Positions 10,142 to 60,642 of a stretch of DNA of 64,000 nucleotides are shown piece after piece. Below the pieces are notes generated by a model. It was not told the origin of the DNA and did no database searches. It saw only the letters and a program-made list of their open reading frames with translations. Location: the NCBI GenBank assembly GCA_938045585.1, contig CALIAU010000011.1:1-64000 (forward strand), given 5' to 3'. The first letter of the stretch is position 1. The number at the start of each line of letters is the position of its first letter. The position numbers and the translations under genes are program-made. The stretch is from an uncultured Saprospiraceae bacterium (GTDB lineage: Bacteria > Bacteroidota > Bacteroidia > Chitinophagales > Saprospiraceae).

Positions 10142-13100
10142 TTATTGTCGAATCACTCTTTCCATAATATTTAATTCACTAGTCTCTAAGCGTACAAGGT
10201 ATGTGCCTGCTGGATATCCGTAAATAGAAAATGTACCTATGAAATTGTTATCGAATTTCCCTACCGTTCTTTGCTGTAAGAGTTTGCCATCAATATTAAA
10301 CAAATATACTTTGAGTTGATCGTCTTGTGTGGGCAAACCCTCTATACTAATCTTAAATACTCCAGCAGTAGGATTAGGGGAAATATTAACGGTAACACTT
10401 GCTCCTTGAATTTCATAAATAGATGTAAGCAATTGAACCTCTACTGTCTCCTCATAAATACATGTGCCATCAATATCTCGAACTACCACGTTATAGACTC
10501 CTGGATCTAAGTTCATAAAAATATTATCGTCAGAAAAAGTGCTTCCTCCATCAATGCTATAACTATAAGGCTCAGTACCTCCCATGGCCGTAATCATAAT
10601 TATACCTTCTCCATTCGTACTTGTTTCGCTAGCTGTTACATCGATAATTGCAGAAAGATTACATTGCTTAGCACAAAATTCTAAGTCTATCTCCGTGCCA
10701 AACTCTCCATTAAAAAAGAATATTTCCTCACCTTCATTATTTGTGATTGTAATATTCCCATTTCCTTCATAGCAGCAAATACCATCTCCATAAGTATCAA
10801 TAAGGGTCAAAATATAGCAATCATCCAAATCAAGACATACTGAAGTATTAATAATTGAACTTGCTTGTTCAACTTGTAAATTTCCAAGTTCCGCTATTAT
10901 TTCTCCAGTGCTCTGAGAACTTAAAACATAGGAAGTCTCTTCAGGAAAAGCATCAGTCAATAAACTAATTGTAAAAGCATTTTCTATCGGAAGAATATTT
11001 GCCTCAACAGAAAAAGTATTATTTGCACTGTCAAAATCCATATCCCCATTGATGCTTAAGATTTCAAAATCAACAGTATTAATTCCTGTGGATGGTACGG
11101 CAATACTAAAAGGAATAGCTTCAGTGATTAACGTAGATATTGCCCCCGCAAAAGTAATATCTGGCTGGACATCTCCATTTAATGAAGCGGCGATTACAGC
11201 TGAGGTTATTTCAGATCCACCTAAGTTTTGTAGAAAAATAGAACCTTCAATCATACCTTGACATGAATTTTGATTAGCTTCTGCAGTTATGCTTCCATCT
11301 AAACTCGGAAGAACTTGTATAGTGCTTACTATTGTATCATTTAATGCATAAGAATCTAAGGCTTGGGTAACAAAACTTCTAAATGTATAATTTCCAACCA
11401 CAGACAAATCGACACTATCAGGAAATGTGTGCAACATGGTCTCACCATTGGCTAAAGTATCCTGTATAGTTGAGCTACTCACAATAATACCATCCAATTC
11501 CAATTCTAATAAGAAATCAGAAATAGTATCTTTCCCAGAGTTCAGTACCTCTATTGTCACAGCCTCTTGAGTAGAAAGATTAGACATCAGAGATAGGGGG
11601 GTGATAAACCTAGAAGCCGTTAAATCAAATGTATCAGGGGTCAGTTTTATAGCAGCTATATTGGTAAGCGTATTGTTAGGCCCAGCATATTCTCCTGTAT
11701 ACCAAAATTCACCAATATTTTCAGGAGCCACAGACATTTGTGCATAATCTCCAAACCTCCCGGCAGAGAAACTTTGTATAGTATTTAAACCCTCTTGTAT
11801 GGTTGTTTCCTCATACGTCATATGACCTAATGAATCCGTAGCATCTCTACCGGTAATGCGCATATCAACATAGGAATTTTCACCTGAAACACTATATCCA
11901 AGACAAATTCCACCTCGTTCATCCATTGCTATTGTACTCATATATCTATGCAATCCGTCATCAGAGCCAACAGTGCCTTCTTGGTATAAGCTCCAATCAC
12001 TTCCTACCGTTCTTCTCAATTCTACCCATCGTACTCCAGAAACATTTTCTCCATCGGTAATGTCCGTTATAAAAGTAAAAACAATAGATTCATGTGTTTC
12101 AAAATTTCTATGGTGAGGAATATTCATGATTGTCTCAGGTAAACCATCTAAACCGTCACCCCCTAATTGAGGGACACATGCAAAACCGGGACTATTGAGT
12201 GAGCAAGGAAAAGCATCGTAAGGAGAAATCTGAATTTCAGTTTGTTCTATAACCGTATTATTGACATCATCAAAATCTACATTAAACGAGTATAATTCTA
12301 TTCCGTCCTCGGTAGGTCCTCCTGCCCAGGAACTATCATCTAACCTCAGTACGATTGGATTATTATCAAATGGTTCATTTGATCCATTAAAATCCACGGG
12401 TGTAGAAACAAAAAAGCCTCCTTCAGTTTCAGTTGTTCCTGGAATACCTACTCGTTGAATTCTTGCATCAGTTTCGCCTGCAAATAATTCTTCTTTATTA
12501 ATAAAATATTGATGTAAGGTACCAGCACCCTCTTCATTTGTAGTAACCACTAGGGCATCTGGTGTTAAGGCATATTTTGGGTAATCTGGAAAATCAGGAG
12601 TAGAAAAATTATACACAAAATAACTTCCAAGAGGGTCGTCCGTTTCACTAACTCCTATCAAAAGATTCGCAGGATCTGTAAACTCCGATAAAATCCATCT
12701 ATCATGATTTTCATCAAATAAAATAATTGGATCACCTTCTGAGGATGCTCCAAATTGTGCCCATAGTGTATTCATATTAAAGGTCTCAATAAGCATTCCT
12801 TGTCTATCAAAAACCGCCACGGAAGTTACATTTACTGCCTGTAAATAATAATCTCTGGATACATCTCCGGTAGGATCTGAAGGAGATGATTGTTCCCAAC
12901 CTTGCCTGTTAACACAAATCTGAAATTGGTTGTCACCAGTAATGCTGTTTACTTTCTGTAAAACACGATCTGGCCCTTGGTGTTCTTTACTTTGTTTAAC
13001 AGCACTACTTCTATTTTTTCTTCCTTTAAAATTGTCCGGTACTTTTTTAGCAATCTTTCTGAGAGATTTCCTCTCAGCAGAAGTTGTAGATTTACTAATA

Positions 13101-13249
13101 GCCTCTTTCACAGCAACAGATTTACCAAGAAAAATTGCCTTAGTTTCCATAATCGATGCTTCCTCAACAATTCTAGTTGAAATCTGCGCCGATAAGCTAA
13201 AACTAAATAGTAGACTAACTGAGATTAAGTAAAAAATTGATTTTATCAT
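10142..13249 (-). CDS. Large T9SS type A secreted protein with CARDB-like and SprB-like domains
   Basis: The 1035-residue product starts with a signal peptide (FSLSAQ at about 17-22) and ends with a type A sorting domain (NISPNPTAGVF, then GYPAGTYLVRLE and MERVIRQ). Residues about 100-530 form a domain with propeller-like repeats that speak of structure only (LFDENHDRWILSEF; FPDYPKYALTPDALVVTTNE), known from secreted proteins of unknown role. Residues about 545-760 look like CARDB or choice-of-anchor beta domains, and about 875-945 is an SprB-type repeat (GEGIIMITAMGGTEPYSYSI). It is exported to the surface; no catalytic motif is seen. It lies five bases after a small lipoprotein gene, so the two probably form an operon. 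Confidence 0.85.
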   Translation of the reverse strand: MIKSIFYLISVSLLFSFSLSAQISTRIVEEASIMETKAIFLGKSVAVKEAISKSTTSAERKSLRKIAKKVPDNFKGRKNRSSAVKQSKEHQGPDRVLQKVNSITGDNQFQICVNRQGWEQSSPSDPTGDVSRDYYLQAVNVTSVAVFDRQGMLIETFNMNTLWAQFGASSEGDPIILFDENHDRWILSEFTDPANLLIGVSETDDPLGSYFVYNFSTPDFPDYPKYALTPDALVVTTNEEGAGTLHQYFINKEELFAGETDARIQRVGIPGTTETEGGFFVSTPVDFNGSNEPFDNNPIVLRLDDSSWAGGPTEDGIELYSFNVDFDDVNNTVIEQTEIQISPYDAFPCSLNSPGFACVPQLGGDGLDGLPETIMNIPHHRNFETHESIVFTFITDITDGENVSGVRWVELRRTVGSDWSLYQEGTVGSDDGLHRYMSTIAMDERGGICLGYSVSGENSYVDMRITGRDATDSLGHMTYEETTIQEGLNTIQSFSAGRFGDYAQMSVAPENIGEFWYTGEYAGPNNTLTNIAAIKLTPDTFDLTASRFITPLSLMSNLSTQEAVTIEVLNSGKDTISDFLLELELDGIIVSSSTIQDTLANGETMLHTFPDSVDLSVVGNYTFRSFVTQALDSYALNDTIVSTIQVLPSLDGSITAEANQNSCQGMIEGSIFLQNLGGSEITSAVIAASLNGDVQPDITFAGAISTLITEAIPFSIAVPSTGINTVDFEILSINGDMDFDSANNTFSVEANILPIENAFTISLLTDAFPEETSYVLSSQSTGEIIAELGNLQVEQASSIINTSVCLDLDDCYILTLIDTYGDGICCYEGNGNITITNNEGEEIFFFNGEFGTEIDLEFCAKQCNLSAIIDVTASETSTNGEGIIMITAMGGTEPYSYSIDGGSTFSDDNIFMNLDPGVYNVVVRDIDGTCIYEETVEVQLLTSIYEIQGASVTVNISPNPTAGVFKISIEGLPTQDDQLKVYLFNIDGKLLQQRTVGKFDNNFIGTFSIYGYPAGTYLVRLETSELNIMERVIRQ

Positions 13250-21369: not shown

Positions 21370-24300
21370 ATGTCATCTTCAAATTTTCAAGTACAGGTTT
21401 TAAAATTTATTTTTTGCTTTTTCTTTATCTCTTTAAATATAGCAGCATTAAGTGCTCAAAATCAAAATTATGATAATTTATACTATTGGTCTGATTTAGG
21501 AAAAACTGAATTGGAAGTCGATAGCGATACGTATATCTTATTGGCAAAGAATAATTCAATTTTCAATTCGAAATTAAGCGCCAATGTCGATAATGAAAAT
21601 ATTAAAAAAGCCAGTAATACTGGATTTTTAATTTACGAGAATGAAAAAAACAAGGTTTCAGAAAAGGACATTTTCAAAGAATTGTCTTTAAATAAAGAAG
21701 ACTGGGAAATTCATCCAGGGCTAAAAACAAGTGCTGGTTCTGCTCCTTTTCATCCTACAAAAAAAGTATTATTTAAAATGAAAAATGGAGAACCTATTTC
21801 CAATATAAATTACATTTTAGATAATTACGAGGTAGTTTCCTTATATGAAGTTAGATCTCATGTTTATACCATTGAAGTGTCAAGTGCTGTAGAGGCTATG
21901 ACCTTAGCTAATTCTATCTATGAATCTGGTCAAGTAAAATTCTCACAGCCAAATTTCACTGTATCCTTAACATTTAATAATGATCCGCTCTTTGATCAGC
22001 AATTTCAGATGCACAATACTGGACAAACAGTTAATGGTACAACAAGTACTCCTGATATTGATGCGGATGCTTTAGAAGCATGGGGAATTACAACTGGTAG
22101 TTCATCTATTAAAGTTGCCGTTCTTGATCAAGGTTTAGAGGCACATCCTGATTTGACAGATGCAAACGGAAATAGTACGGTTGTTGGAGGTTTTACCCCA
22201 GATGTACCTGGTGGTAATGGAGAACCTGATGCAGATACAGACTTTCATGGAATGGCTTGTGCAGGAATAATAAATGCTGCACACAATGATATAGGTGTCA
22301 GAGGTATCGCACCAGGAGTACAATTGCTAGGAGTTAATATTTTTGCTGCACAAACGACAGAATCCTTAGCTTCATCTTTTACATGGGCAAAGGATAATGG
22401 AGCGGATGTAATCAGTAACTCATGGAGTTATACCGATTCAGATTGTAGTACAGATCAGCCTGCAGTTAATGATGCAATAGAGGATGCTTTTCTTAACGGT
22501 AGAAATGGAAAAGGATGTTTAATTGTTTTTTCTTCGGGAAATTCAGGGGAGAACGGATGTGTGGCTTATCCTGCTAGATTAAGCACCGTTACTGCTGTAG
22601 GTGCAATTACTTCTAAGGGAGTTGTGCCAAACTATGGTCAAACAGGTCCTGAGTTAGATCTAGTGGCGCCTACGAGTGATGTAGTTTCTGCAAATGCAAA
22701 TGTTTATACGCTTGATCGAGTGGGTAATTTTGGAATTGTTTTAGGAGATTACCTAACATTTTTTGGAGGCACATCAGCAGCAGCACCCTTGGTTGCTGGA
22801 ACTGGAGCATTAGTCTATAGTTTAAATCCAGATTTAACCATAGCCGAAATGCGTGATATACTCTATTCATCTGCAGATGACATGGGGCCTTCAGGGTTTG
22901 ATAATAGCTTTGGACATGGTAGAGTGAATGCACATCAAGCCGTACTAAACGCTAATACATCTTCTGCTGTTAATGTAGCGCTAAACAAACCGGCGACCCA
23001 ATCTTCTACAAGATTTGGTGGAGTAGCATCAAGAGCCGTTGATGGAAATACGAATGGGAACTCGTTTACACATACTGACTTTGAGCAAGGATGGTGGAGA
23101 GTAGATTTACAGGATGAATATGATATCAGTGCAATCAATATATTCAATAGAACAACTTGTTGTTCCGACCGACTTATAGGAGCAAGTGTATATGTTGGTA
23201 ATATTGGTAGCAGTAACCCCAATGATTATACATTAGTAGGTGCTTTGAACGCGAATGCACAAATCAACTTTACTAATCTAAACGTAAGTGGACGCTATGT
23301 ACTTATTGATAGAAACAATACAAATTGGTTAAGCCTTGCAGAAGTACAAGTTTTTGGGACCTTGGCGCCACCTGCGGTTAACGTAGCACTTAATAAACCT
23401 GCCACTCAGTCGTCTACAAGATTTGGTGGAGTAGCTTCAAGAGCTGTAGATGGAAATACGAATGGGAACTCGTTCACCCATACTGACTTCGAACAAGGAT
23501 GGTGGAGAGTAGATTTACAGGATATATATGATATCAGTACAATCAATGTATTCAACAGAACAACTTGTTGTTCTAACCGACTTGTGGGAGCAAGTGTATA
23601 TGTTGGTAATATTGGCAGCAGTAACCCCAATGATTATACATTAGTAGGTGCTCTGAACGCGAATGCACAAATCAACTTTACTAATCTAAACGTAAGTGGA
23701 CGCTATGTACTTATTGATAGAAATAATACAAATTGGTTAAGCCTTGCAGAAGTACAAGTTTTTGGGACCTTGGCGCCACCTGCTGTCAACGTAGCACTAA
23801 ACAAACCCGCCACTCAGTCATCTACAAGATTTGGCGGAGTAGCATCAAGAGCCGTAGATGGTAATACAAATGGGAACTCGTTTACACATACAGACTTTGA
23901 ACAAGGATGGTGGAGAGTAGATTTACAGGATGAATATGATATCAGTACAATCAATGTATTTAACAGAACAACTTGTTGTTCTGAAAGACTAATAGGAGCA
24001 AGTGTATATGTTGGTAATATTGGCAGCAGTAATCCCAATGATTATACATTAGTAGGTGCTTTGAACGCGAATGCACAAATCAACTTTACTAATCTAAACG
24101 TAAGTGGACGCTATGTACTTATTGATAGGAATAATACAAATTGGTTAAGCCTTGCAGAAGTTCAGGTTTTTGGCACAATATCAGGAGCCATAAACCCTAA
24201 TTTCGATATTACTCAGAATGAAGAAATTACAATTTTCCCTAATCCCGCAAAAGATGTTTTAAATGTAGATCTTTCAAAATACCATAATGCAAGAACTACC

Positions 24301-24477
24301 TATTCCATTTTTGATGTTAATGGAAATGTAATGATGAACGGACAGTTCAATGCAAAACATCTAGATCAAGAATACATCGAATTAGATGGTTTAATAGATG
24401 GGAATTATATTTTATACTTAGTATCTGAAGGGAACAAACCTACAACGCATAAATTTGTAGTACTGAAGTCTTATTAA
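21370..24477 (+). CDS. Subtilisin-like S8 protease with three fucolectin-type domains and T9SS tail
   Basis: The 1035-residue protein has a signal peptide (IAALSAQ), an inhibitor-like propeptide region up to about 200, and an S8 serine protease domain at about 225-530. Asp253 (AVLDQGLEAHPDL), His293 (DFHGMACAGI), the oxyanion Asn391 (SSGNSGE) and Ser469 (GGTSAAAP) form the complete active site. Three tandem F5/8-type, fucolectin-like domains follow at about 535-668, 671-804 and 807-940. Each has NVALNKPATQSS, AVDGNTNG, GWWRVDL and the motif RTTCC(S)(D/N/E)R with a paired cysteine, like eel fucolectin's His...RGDCCxER site. A type A sorting tail (IFPNPAKDVLNVDL) ends it. It should be a cell-surface or secreted protease directed to sugars such as fucose-bearing glycans. 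Confidence 0.94.
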   Translation: MSSSNFQVQVLKFIFCFFFISLNIAALSAQNQNYDNLYYWSDLGKTELEVDSDTYILLAKNNSIFNSKLSANVDNENIKKASNTGFLIYENEKNKVSEKDIFKELSLNKEDWEIHPGLKTSAGSAPFHPTKKVLFKMKNGEPISNINYILDNYEVVSLYEVRSHVYTIEVSSAVEAMTLANSIYESGQVKFSQPNFTVSLTFNNDPLFDQQFQMHNTGQTVNGTTSTPDIDADALEAWGITTGSSSIKVAVLDQGLEAHPDLTDANGNSTVVGGFTPDVPGGNGEPDADTDFHGMACAGIINAAHNDIGVRGIAPGVQLLGVNIFAAQTTESLASSFTWAKDNGADVISNSWSYTDSDCSTDQPAVNDAIEDAFLNGRNGKGCLIVFSSGNSGENGCVAYPARLSTVTAVGAITSKGVVPNYGQTGPELDLVAPTSDVVSANANVYTLDRVGNFGIVLGDYLTFFGGTSAAAPLVAGTGALVYSLNPDLTIAEMRDILYSSADDMGPSGFDNSFGHGRVNAHQAVLNANTSSAVNVALNKPATQSSTRFGGVASRAVDGNTNGNSFTHTDFEQGWWRVDLQDEYDISAINIFNRTTCCSDRLIGASVYVGNIGSSNPNDYTLVGALNANAQINFTNLNVSGRYVLIDRNNTNWLSLAEVQVFGTLAPPAVNVALNKPATQSSTRFGGVASRAVDGNTNGNSFTHTDFEQGWWRVDLQDIYDISTINVFNRTTCCSNRLVGASVYVGNIGSSNPNDYTLVGALNANAQINFTNLNVSGRYVLIDRNNTNWLSLAEVQVFGTLAPPAVNVALNKPATQSSTRFGGVASRAVDGNTNGNSFTHTDFEQGWWRVDLQDEYDISTINVFNRTTCCSERLIGASVYVGNIGSSNPNDYTLVGALNANAQINFTNLNVSGRYVLIDRNNTNWLSLAEVQVFGTISGAINPNFDITQNEEITIFPNPAKDVLNVDLSKYHNARTTYSIFDVNGNVMMNGQFNAKHLDQEYIELDGLIDGNYILYLVSEGNKPTTHKFVVLKSY
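22972..24176 (+). repeat. Three near-identical 408-base coding repeats (fucolectin domains)
   Basis: Units begin at 22972, 23380 and 23788. The parts from the GCGAATGCACAAATC string to the end of each unit are almost base-for-base equal, and the linker ending GGACCTTGGCGCCACCTGC is shared by units 1 and 2. Differences are mostly synonymous and gather in the first third, which suggests recent amplification or gene conversion. Confidence 0.92.
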
Positions 24478-35553: not shown

Positions 35554-38136
35554 ATGAAGCAAATATTAATCATCTTAATGAGTTCTTTCTTTTTTGCCTT
35601 GAGCGCACAGGATAGGCCCAATATCTTGTTCATTATAGCAGATGACCTGGGGCTTGATGCAATGAACGGATTTGGTATTGATGTGCCAAATTTTGCAAAT
35701 ACACCGCATCTAGATGCACTCAGGTCAGAAGGTATTACTTATATGAATACCTGGGCAACGCCGCAATGTACTCCCACCAGATCAAGTATAATGAGTGGGA
35801 AGTATGGAATAAAGACAGGTGTACAGTCAGCACCAGGAAACCTTGACCTAGAACACGAATCCTTACTCAATCTTATTAAAGAAGAAACGGATAATGCATA
35901 TGCTACTGCAGTTATTGGAAAATGGCATATATCTCAACCTGTCAATGTGAATCATCCTTTTGAACATGGTGCGGACCATTATGAAGGAATCATAGACGGT
36001 ACTATAGGTGATTACTATGATTGGGAAAAAGTAGAAAATGGTGCATTTGTTCAAATAGACGAATATGTAACTACACACTTAACTAACGCCGCAATTGACT
36101 GGCTGTCAGACCAAACAAATCCTTGGTTTTTATGGTTAGCACATATAGCTCCCCATTCTCCTTTTCAAGTGCCTCCTGATAGTTTACATACAGTCAATAA
36201 TCCAACATCAAATCGACAAATTTATAATGCAAGCATAGAAGCATTAGATCATGAAATAGGCAGATTGTTGGATAGTATGGATGAAGAAACTAGGAATAAC
36301 ACTTTAGTGGTTTTTATAGGGGACAATGGGACTCCAAATGGCGTTATGCGCGGATATCCAGATATGCATAGTAAGGGAAGCATGTATGAGGGAGGACTTC
36401 GTGTCCCTATGATTATCTCTGGTAAAGGAGTTGATCGCAAAGGTGCAGAAGAATTTGGTTTAACGCAGGTAAATGATCTTCATGCTACTTTTGCCAGCAT
36501 TGGATCTGATGCGCAGGTTCAGGGAGGCTTATATAATAGCTATGATATTTCAGCGTCTTTTGTACAAGAGAATGCCATAGTTAGAAATTATACCTATGCA
36601 GATTATATCGATGATGGTGTAGAATTCTGGGCAATTCGAAATGATACGTATAAGCTCATTGAAGATGAAGAGGGCAATCAGGAGCTCTATAGAATAGATA
36701 CAAATATCCAAGAGGAGAATAATCTGATTGGAAACCTAACAGCAGATGAAGCTGAGATTTTAATGAACTTAGAAGAAGAAGCAGATGCAATACGTAACGG
36801 CTGGTCTTGCCAAGATTTTATTCTAAATGGTACAGAAATAGAAATTGATGATTGCATGAATGGATCGGATTGTACAGAAATTGATGTCCTCAGTTTCGAA
36901 AACATTGGATGCTGTGACTCACCGGATGAGCCCAGCGTTTATTACGAATTTGAAGAAGACAACCTTAGGCATATTTACTCCAATGGATTTCCAAATCATG
37001 ATTACTGTTATAATCCTAATAATATACCCACCCAATCGTATCAATACCTCAGAGTAAATAAAGAGCCGCAAATGGCAAACCAAATTACGAGTATCATTCG
37101 CAATAATGGTAGGCCAGCTAGAGATCTAGGAGTAGCATTGAATGGTGTCATACTATCACCCGCACCCGGGACTCCCTTTATTTATACGGATAAGAATACA
37201 GGTGAATTTAATTGGGATTGGGTTTTTGAACCTACAAACAATCAAGGAGATGATATGGGGCAGGTGCGTCTGGACTGTGCTACGGCACATACCAATGCGG
37301 CAGGCTATCACTATCATGGAGAAATGTTTGAATATCTAGAAACAGTAAGTCCTGGTATTACAAGTGTAAGCTCTCTTGATGAAGTATTCCAAATAGGCTG
37401 GGCATCTGATGGTTATCCTATCTTATACAAATTTGGTCCAGATGCAAGCGGTCAGATAAAAGAACTTATGCCGAGTTTTCAACTAAAGAGTGGAGAACGA
37501 CCCGGTGATGGTATTTCTGCTCCCTGTGGTCCTTATACTGGAAAATATACAGTGGACTATGAGTATGTAGAGGGCTTAGGAGATCTAGATGAGTGCAATG
37601 GAATTATGGCTCCAGTAAACCTAGAGACTGCACTTGGTACGGAAAGCTTTGACTATTATTATGTGATCACATCATCTTTTCCACAAATTGGTAGATGTCT
37701 GAAAGGGATTGTAAGCGAAGATTTTGAATTAATGGCTGATCCTATTACTGGAGTTGATTTAGATGGGGATGGATACATTGCTCAATTTGACTGTGATGAT
37801 AATAATATTGCAATTAACCCCAGTGCAGAAGAAATTCCAAATAATGGGATAGACGAAGATTGTGATGGAGATGATCTTATAACGTCTGTACACCAACTAT
37901 CTGAAACACATATCAACGTGTTTCCTAATCCAGTCAATGATCTAATACGTATCGAATTAGATGGAGAATTGCGTTTTAGTGCAGAGCTGTATACAGTGTC
38001 AGGTGCGATAGTGCATAGCTCAAAGAATAATAAAGAAATTGATGTAAGCAAGATTTCTGACGGCCTGTATCTTCTTAAGATTTCAAGCATAACAACAGGT
38101 AAACATATAATTCAAAAGATATTAATAGAAAAATAA
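35554..38136 (+). CDS. Sulfatase fused to YHYH domain, MopE motif and T9SS tail
   Basis: The 860-residue protein has a signal peptide (FALSAQ) and a sulfatase domain (residues about 20-420). NILFIIADDLG at 23-33 gives metal ligands Asp30 and Asp31, and QCTPTRSSIMSGKYG at 71-85 carries Cys72, the formylglycine residue in the C-x-P-x-R motif. Residues about 455-700 form a YHYH domain, with YHYH at 585-588. After that comes a MopE-type metal motif (DLDGDGYIAQFDCDDNN, then IDEDCDGDD) and a type A sorting tail (VFPNPVNDLIRIEL). Sulfatases hydrolyse sulfate esters; algal polysaccharides are a likely but unproven target. A maturation enzyme is not encoded here. A HIT gene follows after 17 bases. Confidence 0.93.
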   Translation: MKQILIILMSSFFFALSAQDRPNILFIIADDLGLDAMNGFGIDVPNFANTPHLDALRSEGITYMNTWATPQCTPTRSSIMSGKYGIKTGVQSAPGNLDLEHESLLNLIKEETDNAYATAVIGKWHISQPVNVNHPFEHGADHYEGIIDGTIGDYYDWEKVENGAFVQIDEYVTTHLTNAAIDWLSDQTNPWFLWLAHIAPHSPFQVPPDSLHTVNNPTSNRQIYNASIEALDHEIGRLLDSMDEETRNNTLVVFIGDNGTPNGVMRGYPDMHSKGSMYEGGLRVPMIISGKGVDRKGAEEFGLTQVNDLHATFASIGSDAQVQGGLYNSYDISASFVQENAIVRNYTYADYIDDGVEFWAIRNDTYKLIEDEEGNQELYRIDTNIQEENNLIGNLTADEAEILMNLEEEADAIRNGWSCQDFILNGTEIEIDDCMNGSDCTEIDVLSFENIGCCDSPDEPSVYYEFEEDNLRHIYSNGFPNHDYCYNPNNIPTQSYQYLRVNKEPQMANQITSIIRNNGRPARDLGVALNGVILSPAPGTPFIYTDKNTGEFNWDWVFEPTNNQGDDMGQVRLDCATAHTNAAGYHYHGEMFEYLETVSPGITSVSSLDEVFQIGWASDGYPILYKFGPDASGQIKELMPSFQLKSGERPGDGISAPCGPYTGKYTVDYEYVEGLGDLDECNGIMAPVNLETALGTESFDYYYVITSSFPQIGRCLKGIVSEDFELMADPITGVDLDGDGYIAQFDCDDNNIAINPSAEEIPNNGIDEDCDGDDLITSVHQLSETHINVFPNPVNDLIRIELDGELRFSAELYTVSGAIVHSSKNNKEIDVSKISDGLYLLKISSITTGKHIIQKILIEK

Positions 38137-59188: not shown

Positions 59189-59568
59189 ACTGAACGGACG
59201 AAGCAGACTAAGCAGATATATTTTCGGGGAAATAAGCAAAAGTCTGTGTTCAAGGGGTCATGACCCCTTGGGTATGTTTGTTGTGGACGGAGTAGTGAAG
59301 AGGAAGAGATATTATGCGCTAGATGTTATACGATATACCTTAGACGAAGGTGTACTAAAGATGAGCAAGACGGAGAGATTAAGAGATGAAGTGACGGAGA
59401 GATTAGATGAGGAGTTTTAATGCTTTGATCTTTGACGTAAAGACTAGACTGGAATTTGAGGTTTTATTTGTATGTATTATGTATAGTAAATAATAGATTA
59501 ACAGTATATTATAAAATGTTATATAAACTATTACTTTAAGTAATCATTGCCTATCTTTAACATCGCTC

Positions 59569-59628
59569 TCCCTCCATCCATCCCTCCATCCCTCCATCCC
59601 TCCCTCCATCCCTCCCTCCATCCCTCCG
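59569..59628. repeat. CCATCCCTCC microsatellite
   Basis: About sixty bases consist of CCAT and CCCT units in irregular alternation (CCATCCATCCCTCC and so on), all pyrimidine apart from A. It lies about 180 bases before the rpsP promoter. Confidence 0.9.
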
Positions 59629-59916: not shown

Positions 59917-60642
59917 ATGTCAGTAAAGATCAGATTGGCCCGAAGAGGCCGTAGAAAAAAGCCATATTATCACATCGTAGTGGCTGATGCAAGAGCTCCA
60001 AGAGACGGAAAATTTATCGAAAACATAGGGATGTATAATCCTATGACTAAGCCAGCAACTATTAGTCTGGATAGAGATAGAGCGTATGATTGGCTCATGA
60101 AGGGTGCACAACCCTCAGAAACAGCAAGAGCAATCCTAAGATTTAAAGGAGTGTATTATAGAAAACATCTAATGCGTGGTGTTGCAAAGGGAGCCTTCTC
60201 TGAGGAGAAAGCAAACGAGATGTACAATGCGTGGATAGATGCCAAAGAAGCTAAAATCGCGGCACGTTTTGAAGAGACGCGTATAGAGCAAGAGAACTTC
60301 TGGAAAATGTTATCTGGTGAAATTAAGCCTGTTCAAAAGGCTGCTGCAACTACGGCTGCAGAGGATTTCAAACCAGAAGAGCAACAAACGTTAGCAGAAG
60401 CAGCAGAAGAGAAAATGTCTGCAGAGGCGGCAACAGCAATCGCAGCAGGGGCAGAAGTGCCAGCGGCAGAAGCGCCAGCAGCTGAGGCTCCGGAAGCTCC
60501 AGTAGCAGAAGCACCAGCAGCTGAGGAAACTCCAGCAGCGGAGGCGCCAGCGGCAGAGGAAGCTCCAGCGGCAGAAGTGGCTGAAGAAGCACCAGCGGCA
60601 GAAGAAGCTGCTCCTGAGGAAAAACCGGAGGGAGACGCATAA
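59917..60642 (+). CDS. rpsP: 30S ribosomal protein S16 with long Ala/Pro/Glu tail
   Basis: The first 80 or so residues are S16 (MSVKIRLARRGRRKKPYYHI, VADARAPRDGKFIENIGMYN, SETARAILRFKGVYYR), a protein of the 30S platform needed for assembly. S16 is usually 80-90 residues in most bacteria; Bacteroidota forms are longer. Here residues about 85-150 form a helical extension and about 150-241 a low-complexity tail of AEAPAAE-type units. The rimM and trmD genes that often follow rpsP are absent downstream. A terminator lies between this gene and the next. Confidence 0.97.
   Translation: MSVKIRLARRGRRKKPYYHIVVADARAPRDGKFIENIGMYNPMTKPATISLDRDRAYDWLMKGAQPSETARAILRFKGVYYRKHLMRGVAKGAFSEEKANEMYNAWIDAKEAKIAARFEETRIEQENFWKMLSGEIKPVQKAAATTAAEDFKPEEQQTLAEAAEEKMSAEAATAIAAGAEVPAAEAPAAEAPEAPVAEAPAAEETPAAEAPAAEEAPAAEVAEEAPAAEEAAPEEKPEGDA

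What the first reader, a model, noticed from the sequence alone, without database searches (positions are those of the whole stretch)
21370..24477. Secreted subtilisin-like protease with three almost identical fucolectin-type domains
A full S8 catalytic triad is followed by three F5/8-type lectin domains whose 408-base units are nearly the same at the DNA level. Each keeps the paired-cysteine site (RTTCC then S and D/N/E and R) known for fucose binding in eel fucolectin. A protease aimed at fucose-rich glycans and exported by T9SS, with units that can expand or shrink by recombination, would be a variable surface tool.
Basis: partly seen in the sequence, partly recalled or inferred. Interest (0 to 1): 0.62.

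Follow-up and report, generated by a model that had tools for sequence, protein, structure and literature searches.

The report
Protease with three fucose-lectin-like domains
A bacterium, probably of the family Saprospiraceae, encodes a secreted subtilisin-like protease that carries three near-identical copies of an animal-like fucose-lectin domain, probably to hold the enzyme on sugar-coated surfaces; it is an unusual combination of known parts rather than a new kind of system.

Summary
ORF 21370-24477 (1035 aa) reads as signal peptide, propeptide, S8 protease with intact catalytic residues, three 408-nt F-type-lectin-like units and a T9SS tail. The unit model (pLDDT 90.7) matches F-type lectins best among solved structures. 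His, both Arg and the Cys-Cys pair are kept, but the Asp of the published fucose motif is Thr in all three units, and Thr, Ser or Asn in all 13 units of the five related proteins found; strict motif membership is therefore not claimed.

The units are old: 28-29 of 390 nt differ per pair, mostly silently (dS 0.30-0.38, dN 0.010-0.022). Units group by protein, not by position (by-position trees rejected, AU p <= 1e-4), and their number differs between relatives (3, 3, 3, 2, 2). So arrays are homogenised or re-amplified over evolution while selection keeps copies alike, which fits a multivalent lectin better than a variable one.

Best reading: a mirolase-like secreted subtilase held on fucose-type glycans by three equal lectin domains. 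Binding and cleavage are inferred. Of 20 related S8 proteins scanned (39-47% identical), none has these domains. New variant of a known kind (lectin-guided protease).

The parts
21370..24477 (+). whole gene: S8 protease with three F-type-lectin-like domains and T9SS tail, 1035 aa
   Evidence: ORF; Pfam
21370..21456 (+). N-terminal signal peptide (about aa 1-29, hydrophobic stretch ending ALSA)
   Evidence: sequence read by eye; no signal-peptide program was run
21457..21978 (+). propeptide (about aa 30-203); mature enzyme may start near aa 204
   Evidence: inference: the solved mirolase chain 8ehe aligns from residue 174 of the query that starts at aa 31, i.e. aa 204
22102..22920 (+). Peptidase_S8 catalytic domain (aa 245-517); D253, H293, N391, S469
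   Evidence: Pfam PF00082 8.9e-45; residues; invariant in the 5 aligned proteins
22972..23361 (+). F-type-lectin-like unit 1 (130-aa core, repeat period 408 nt); H568, R594, T596, C597-C598, R601
23380..23769 (+). F-type-lectin-like unit 2 (130-aa core)
23788..24177 (+). F-type-lectin-like unit 3 (130-aa core)
24232..24462 (+). T9SS type A sorting domain (Por_Secre_tail, aa 955-1031)
   Evidence: PF18962 40.9 bits over cut-off 27; TIGR04183 30.4 bits over 23

Best explanation
It is a secreted protease, at the cell surface or released. The protein crosses the inner membrane with its signal peptide and the outer membrane through the type IX system by its C-terminal tail, and loses its propeptide to become active (steps inferred from the domains). 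The mirolase-like subtilase then cuts protein, while the three equal lectin domains bind terminal alpha-L-fucose or a close analogue on glycoproteins or glycan coats. Three like sites in a row give avidity, so the protease is held on its substrate. The array is kept uniform by purifying selection on the protein plus occasional unequal recombination or conversion between units, which also sets the unit number (2 or 3) in different lineages. Shown: architecture, intact catalytic residues, F-type fold of the model, retained basic triad and Cys-Cys pair, replacement of the motif Asp, grouping of units by protein, unit-number differences. Inferred: fucose binding, proteolytic activity, avidity, targets.
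For: Domains and catalytic residues. Closest solved S8 is mirolase of Tannerella forsythia, 1.5e-65, one of the proteases with a C-terminal T9SS-type domain (PMC4404884, abstract and passages). A GldL match over cut-off is in the genome. The unit's best PDB sequence matches are F-type lectins (3cqo 8.9e-34, 3le0 2e-16, 1k12 7.2e-14); the first 10 of 50 VIA-align rows are F-type lectins (Z 17.9-20.1, rmsd 1.6-2.1 over 126-129 residues), the next a chitosan-binding module at 16.7. H, R, CC, R are invariant in 13 of 13 clade units, and each window unit has no other cysteine, as a vicinal disulfide needs. dN/dS is about 0.03-0.07 between window units. By-position trees are rejected, delta lnL 81 and 164, p-AU 4e-5 and 1e-4. 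Precedent: CBM32 modules are essential for M60 mucinases on large mucins but not on short glycopeptides (PMC13003899, abstract and section 7).
Against: No binding or protease data exist for this protein here. The motif Asp, said to salt-bridge the first Arg and to touch subterminal sugars (PMC5712786, passages), is Thr, so fucose binding might be weakened or shifted. The genome (97.96% complete) gave no GH29 fucosidase match, so it does not look like a fucose consumer. The full-length model failed (pLDDT 39.7), so the placing of protease and lectin domains is unknown. Side-chain geometry of the triad was not measured. Tree support for the window trio alone is only 66-69.
Confidence: 0.6

Rival explanations
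1. The lectin units keep the enzyme on the producer's own surface glycans or biofilm matrix rather than aiming it at foreign substrate.
For: Surface retention is proposed for the KLIKK T9SS proteases (PMC4404884, passage). No fucosidase match was found in the genome, so fucose need not be food.
Against: The T9SS tail already offers surface anchoring, so lectin domains would be redundant. Related S8 proteins manage without them (0 of 20 scanned).
Confidence: 0.2
2. The site has shifted (a variant of the best explanation, not exclusive of it): loss of the motif Asp in the whole clade marks binding of a different or modified ligand, for instance a charged (sulfated) or methylated fucose or galactose, rather than plain terminal alpha-fucose.
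For: Asp is replaced by Thr/Ser/Asn in 13 of 13 clade units, while 74 of 95 distinct related domains in the fetched loci have Asp (biased sample) and relatives outside the clade at 55-68% identity all read RTDCC or RADCC. The lost charge lies next to the first Arg of the triad. Eel lectin already accepts 3-O-methyl sugars (PMC5712786, passage). A T9SS-tailed sulfatase, the only PF00884 match in the genome, is at 35554-38136.
Against: Domain 2 of bass FBP32 aligns with Ser at this place (RDS, gap placing uncertain), and the review says both its domains keep the basic triad, so the Asp may not be needed. The sulfatase link is only proximity.
Confidence: 0.3
3. One reading: a variable surface tool whose unit number changes often by recombination.
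For: Unit number is 3, 3, 3, 2 and 2 in five related proteins. A different S8-lectin protein in genome G085 (L095) has two units differing at 1 of 399 nt, so fresh duplication happens in this protein type.
Against: Window units differ at 28-29 of 390 nt with dS 0.30-0.38, so no recent copying. Amino acids are kept, not varied.
Confidence: 0.12
4. The repeat is an assembly or chance artefact.
For: Source assemblies are drafts: the window's genome is in 44 contigs, and two of the relatives lie on contigs of 3,886 and 4,192 bases.
Against: Units differ about every 14 nt inside a 331-kb contig, the frame is open throughout, and the same 408-nt architecture appears in separately named assemblies L044 and L045.
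Confidence: 0.03

Closest known systems
F-type lectins: eel AAA (1k12), bass FBP32 (3cqo), lectinolysin lectin domain, S. pneumoniae fucose-binding modules
   Same: jelly-roll fold (Z 17.9-20.1), His-Arg-Arg triad, adjacent cysteines as in AAA, cation motif h2DGx (AVDGN)
   Different: Thr in place of the motif Asp; only the CC pair per unit, so no AAA-type structural disulfides; fused to a protease. The review calls prokaryotic members usually single, although it names a S. pneumoniae protein with three tandem domains
Mirolase of Tannerella forsythia (8ehe), a KLIKK protease with a T9SS-type tail
   Same: S8 domain (1.5e-65), propeptide, C-terminal T9SS-type domain (PMC4404884, passages)
   Different: segments flanking its protease domain, apart from the CTD, are described as without known homologues; the window protein has lectin-like domains there
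CBM32-bearing M60 mucinases (BT4244, HC11)
   Same: Bacteroidota protease plus glycan-binding modules that are needed to cut large glycosylated substrates (PMC13003899, abstract and section 7)
   Different: metalloprotease, not subtilase; CBM32 modules binding Tn or T O-glycans, not F-type lectin domains; the near-identical triple array is not described in the parts read
Oyster sperm bindins (one to five tandem F-type lectin domains)
   Same: tandem array with changing unit number (PMC5712786, passage)
   Different: bindin domains diversify by positive selection at the pocket; here amino acids are conserved and changes are mostly silent

Membership tests
Peptidase family S8 (subtilase) | S8 domain over curated cut-off with Asp-His-Ser triad | tested here: met
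   PF00082 153.6 bits vs 21.8; D253, H293, S469, invariant in the 5 aligned proteins
Peptidase family S8 (subtilase) | proteolytic activity | not testable with these tools
   needs the purified enzyme
F-type lectin | F-type jelly-roll fold | tested here: met
   unit model pLDDT 90.7; first 10 of 50 VIA-align rows are F-type lectins, Z 17.9-20.1; Foldseek rows 1-11 likewise
F-type lectin | basic triad His...Arg...Arg | tested here: met
   aligned with 1k12 and 3cqo; invariant in 13 of 13 clade units; side-chain geometry not measured
F-type lectin | strict fucose motif HX24RXDX4(R/K) | tested here: not met
   Thr at the Asp place in all three units; His-Arg gap 25, not 24. The review itself counts domains that deviate from the motif as FTLDs; I therefore claim fold and triad, not strict motif membership
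F-type lectin | cation motif h2DGx | tested here: met
   AVDGN in all three units
F-type lectin | binds alpha-L-fucose | not testable with these tools
   glycan array or ITC needed
T9SS type A cargo | C-terminal sorting domain over cut-off | tested here: met
   PF18962 and TIGR04183 over cut-off
T9SS type A cargo | a type IX machine in the same genome | tested here: inconclusive
   GldL match over cut-off; other T9SS genes were not searched

The most novel reading that the evidence does not exclude
A clade of T9SS subtilases has moved the F-type lectin site away from plain fucose (motif Asp replaced by Thr, Ser or Asn in every unit found) and keeps two or three copies alike by concerted evolution. 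The enzyme would then be a multivalent reader of a modified or charged fucose-type glycan, such as a sulfated algal or animal glycan, coupled to proteolysis.
Probability: 0.2. Interest if true: 0.55.

Novelty: new variant of a known kind. Interest (0 to 1): 0.36.

Why it matters
It couples a well-studied animal-type fucose-lectin fold to a bacterial subtilase and repeats it with selection to keep the copies alike, a natural test of lectin avidity in a protease. The clade-wide change at one pocket residue makes a direct experiment on what that Asp does. Use as a glycan-guided protease is possible but speculative.

Tried and rejected
Recent slippage of identical DNA: rejected for the window by 28-29 of 390 nt differences and dS 0.30-0.38. 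Position-wise orthology of units: rejected by the AU test; the alignment is short (402 columns), the constraint put the second units of L044 and L046 with third units by my choice, and support for the window trio alone is only 66-69. Conversion tract inside the array: one of three pairs shows a long identical run (95 nt, permutation p 0.0026; the other two 0.095 and 0.115), so suggestive only. The five amino-acid differences between window units fall within 21 residues around the CC loop (p 0.002, tested after seeing the data).

Fucose catabolism as context: no PF01120 match in the genome; neighbours are Omp28-like, ATP-grasp, DUF2200, beta-helix and GH32 genes, no clear operon partner. Promoter and terminator scans found numbers within one standard deviation of shuffles (25 vs 21.8 +/- 4.4; 3 vs 2.4 +/- 1.5). 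Conserved neighbourhood: matches to the flanking genes lie on other contigs than the S8-lectin genes in G213 and G250, and in G082 only pieces on separate contigs match; G250's S8-lectin contig is only 4.2 kb, so insertion could not be dated. Plasmid carriage: of 463 plasmid records with a match none covers 80% of the protein in one place. Transfer to Aquimarina: L046 has 87% S8 identity but lies on a 3.9-kb contig labelled uncultured Aquimarina, so mis-binning is not excluded (locus GC 0.343, against 0.323 for L047 of the same isolate and 0.377-0.388 for L044 and L045). Full-length structure: model failed. No viral-library fold search was run.

Literature: F-type lectin domain with subtilisin (0 papers); fucolectin with subtilisin (2, unrelated by title and abstract start); F-type lectin domain with peptidase and architecture (1, on rotifers); F-type lectin, Bacteroidetes and fucose-binding (2); Saprospiraceae, lectin and type IX secretion (0); F-type lectin, serine protease, multidomain, bacterial, any three (512 papers, only 10 listed, so not conclusive). 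The words protease and peptidase do not occur in the main text of the F-type lectin review. A 2008 survey of prokaryotic serine proteases has no 'discoidin', 'lectin' or 'type C domain' in its main text (PMC2605481). A taxonomic survey of F-type lectins, looked up by a recalled DOI, is not held, so a listing of such a fusion there cannot be excluded.

Full report
What is there. The ORF 21370-24477 (+) encodes 1035 aa. Pfam gives Peptidase_S8 at aa 245-517, three F5_F8_type_C_2 / F5_F8_type_C stretches and a Por_Secre_tail at 955-1031. The N-terminus reads as a Sec signal (by eye). D253, H293, N391 and S469 are in place and invariant in the five aligned proteins. The closest solved S8 is Tannerella forsythia mirolase, 8ehe, E 1.5e-65; the match starts at aa 204, which suggests where the propeptide ends. 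The genome is placed in Saprospiraceae by inference: contigs of same-family genomes G250 and G213 have the same numbers and lengths as records labelled uncultured Saprospiraceae.

The repeat. TRF reports period 408 with 3.0 copies. Over 130-aa cores, pairs of window units differ at 28-29 of 390 nt and share 96-98% of amino acids. Of the 39 codons that vary among the three, 34 are silent. NG86 gives dS 0.30-0.38 and dN 0.010-0.022. So the copies are not recent, and the protein has been kept nearly constant by purifying selection.

The lectin fold. phmmer against the PDB gives bass FBP32 (8.9e-34), lectinolysin's lectin domain (2e-16), eel AAA (7.2e-14) and S. pneumoniae fucose modules. The single-unit AlphaFold model has mean pLDDT 90.7. 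Foldseek rows 1-11 and the first 10 of 50 VIA-align rows are F-type lectins, Z 17.9-20.1; a chitosan-binding module follows at 16.7. The full-length model failed with pLDDT 39.7, so domain arrangement is unknown.

The sugar site. In eel AAA, His52, Arg79 and Arg86 bind fucose, the Cys82-Cys83 disulfide touches the ring, and Asp81 contacts subterminal sugars; the published motif is HX24RXDX4(R/K) (PMC5712786, passages). In window unit 1 the equivalents are H568, R594, C597-C598 and R601, with T596 in place of Asp. Each unit has no other cysteine, consistent with a vicinal disulfide. In 13 of 13 clade units H, R, CC and R are invariant, and the Asp place reads Thr 9, Asn 3, Ser 1. Among 95 distinct related domains in the loci held at that time, that place is Asp in 74, Thr in 9 (all in this clade), Asn in 4, Gly in 3, Ser in 2 and a gap in 3; 31 of 95 have the full H/R/D/CC/R set. 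That sample is biased: it comes from best matches and a profile made from the clade. The nearest relatives outside the clade (L047, L048, L049, L056/L095, L055/L113) all have Asp there. Bass FBP32 domain 2 aligns with Ser at this place, with a gap next to it, so the Asp may not be needed. I claim the fold and triad, not strict motif membership.

Relatives. Full-length relatives are L044 (2 units) and two adjacent genes on L045 (3 units each), both records labelled uncultured Saprospiraceae, and L046, labelled uncultured Aquimarina (2 units separated by an unidentified stretch of about 170 aa). S8 identity to the window is 76-87%. In a draw of 398 genomes of the family, 92 have a match to the unit at E <= 1e-3, and 34, own genome included, match some part of the protein at E <= 1e-60. 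In 395 genomes of the phylum, 4 do, own genome included. Of the 26 loci L096-L121, 25 have an S8-type catalytic motif and L113 is a lectin protein without an S8 hit. I scanned 20 of the 25 with Pfam (one, L104, is cut by its locus end): fn3 in 11 (one just under cut-off), GEVED in 2, F5/8 or F-type domain in 0; S8-region identity is 39-47%. The other five (L100, L112, L114, L116, L119; four of them cut by the locus end) were only checked by motif and showed none. The other genome of the genus, G082 (82% complete), gave no copy. The same lectin type also sits on an M36 protease (L047), a CEMIP-like protein (L049) and a different S8 (L056/L095), so it is a shared module.

How the array evolves. 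Maximum-likelihood trees join units by protein: L044 pair 99, L046 pair 97-99, L045a units 1-2 94-97, window trio 66-69. Trees that force grouping by position are rejected (delta lnL 81 and 164, p-AU 4e-5 and 1e-4), while the by-protein tree equals the best. In G085 another S8-lectin protein has units 1 and 2 differing at 1 of 399 nt, so fresh duplication does occur in such proteins. Together this supports concerted evolution or repeated re-amplification, with old, conserved copies in the window.

Mechanism. I commit to a T9SS-exported mirolase-like subtilase held on fucose-type glycans by three equal lectin domains (confidence 0.6). A GldL match is present. The closest tested precedent is the M60 mucinase group, where CBM32 is essential for large mucins but not short glycopeptides (PMC13003899, abstract and section 7). 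Fucose binding, cleavage and avidity are inferred. The genome gave no GH29 match and one sulfatase match, T9SS-tailed, at 35554-38136 in the window, so fucose is more likely an address than food. The rival confidences overlap and do not sum to one.

Novelty. The parts are known. In the searches listed I saw no paper on an F-type lectin joined to a subtilase; a wider search listed only 10 of 512 papers, and a key survey is not held. I file it as a new variant of a known kind.

Noticed in passing
L095 1507-2763 (G085:C4): A different S8 protein carries three F-type-lectin units with canonical RTDCC; units 1 and 2 differ at 1 of 399 nt, a very recent duplication.
   Followed up: partly
L045 4375-11305: Two adjacent S8-lectin genes with three units each; the last unit of the second gene is only 68-78% identical to the other 12 units compared.
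   Followed up: partly
L046 2490-3011: Unidentified stretch of about 170 aa between the two lectin units of the protein labelled Aquimarina; no Pfam match there at E <= 0.001.
   Followed up: no
L049 3058-6783: CEMIP-like beta-helix and G8 domain protein with one F-type-lectin domain in a contig labelled Croceitalea.
   Followed up: no
35554-38136: Sulfatase with a T9SS tail, the only PF00884 match in the genome.
   Followed up: no
10142-13249: Another 1035-aa protein with a T9SS tail match and no other Pfam family at E <= 1e-5.
   Followed up: no
60446-60610: Short tandem repeats rich in CCAGCAGCAGAAG units inside ORF 59917-60642; also an 8/12/20-base repeat at 59568-59627.
   Followed up: no
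G000:C11:75465-76520 (outside the window): A second S8 protease on the same contig with T9SS tail and no lectin domain.
   Followed up: partly
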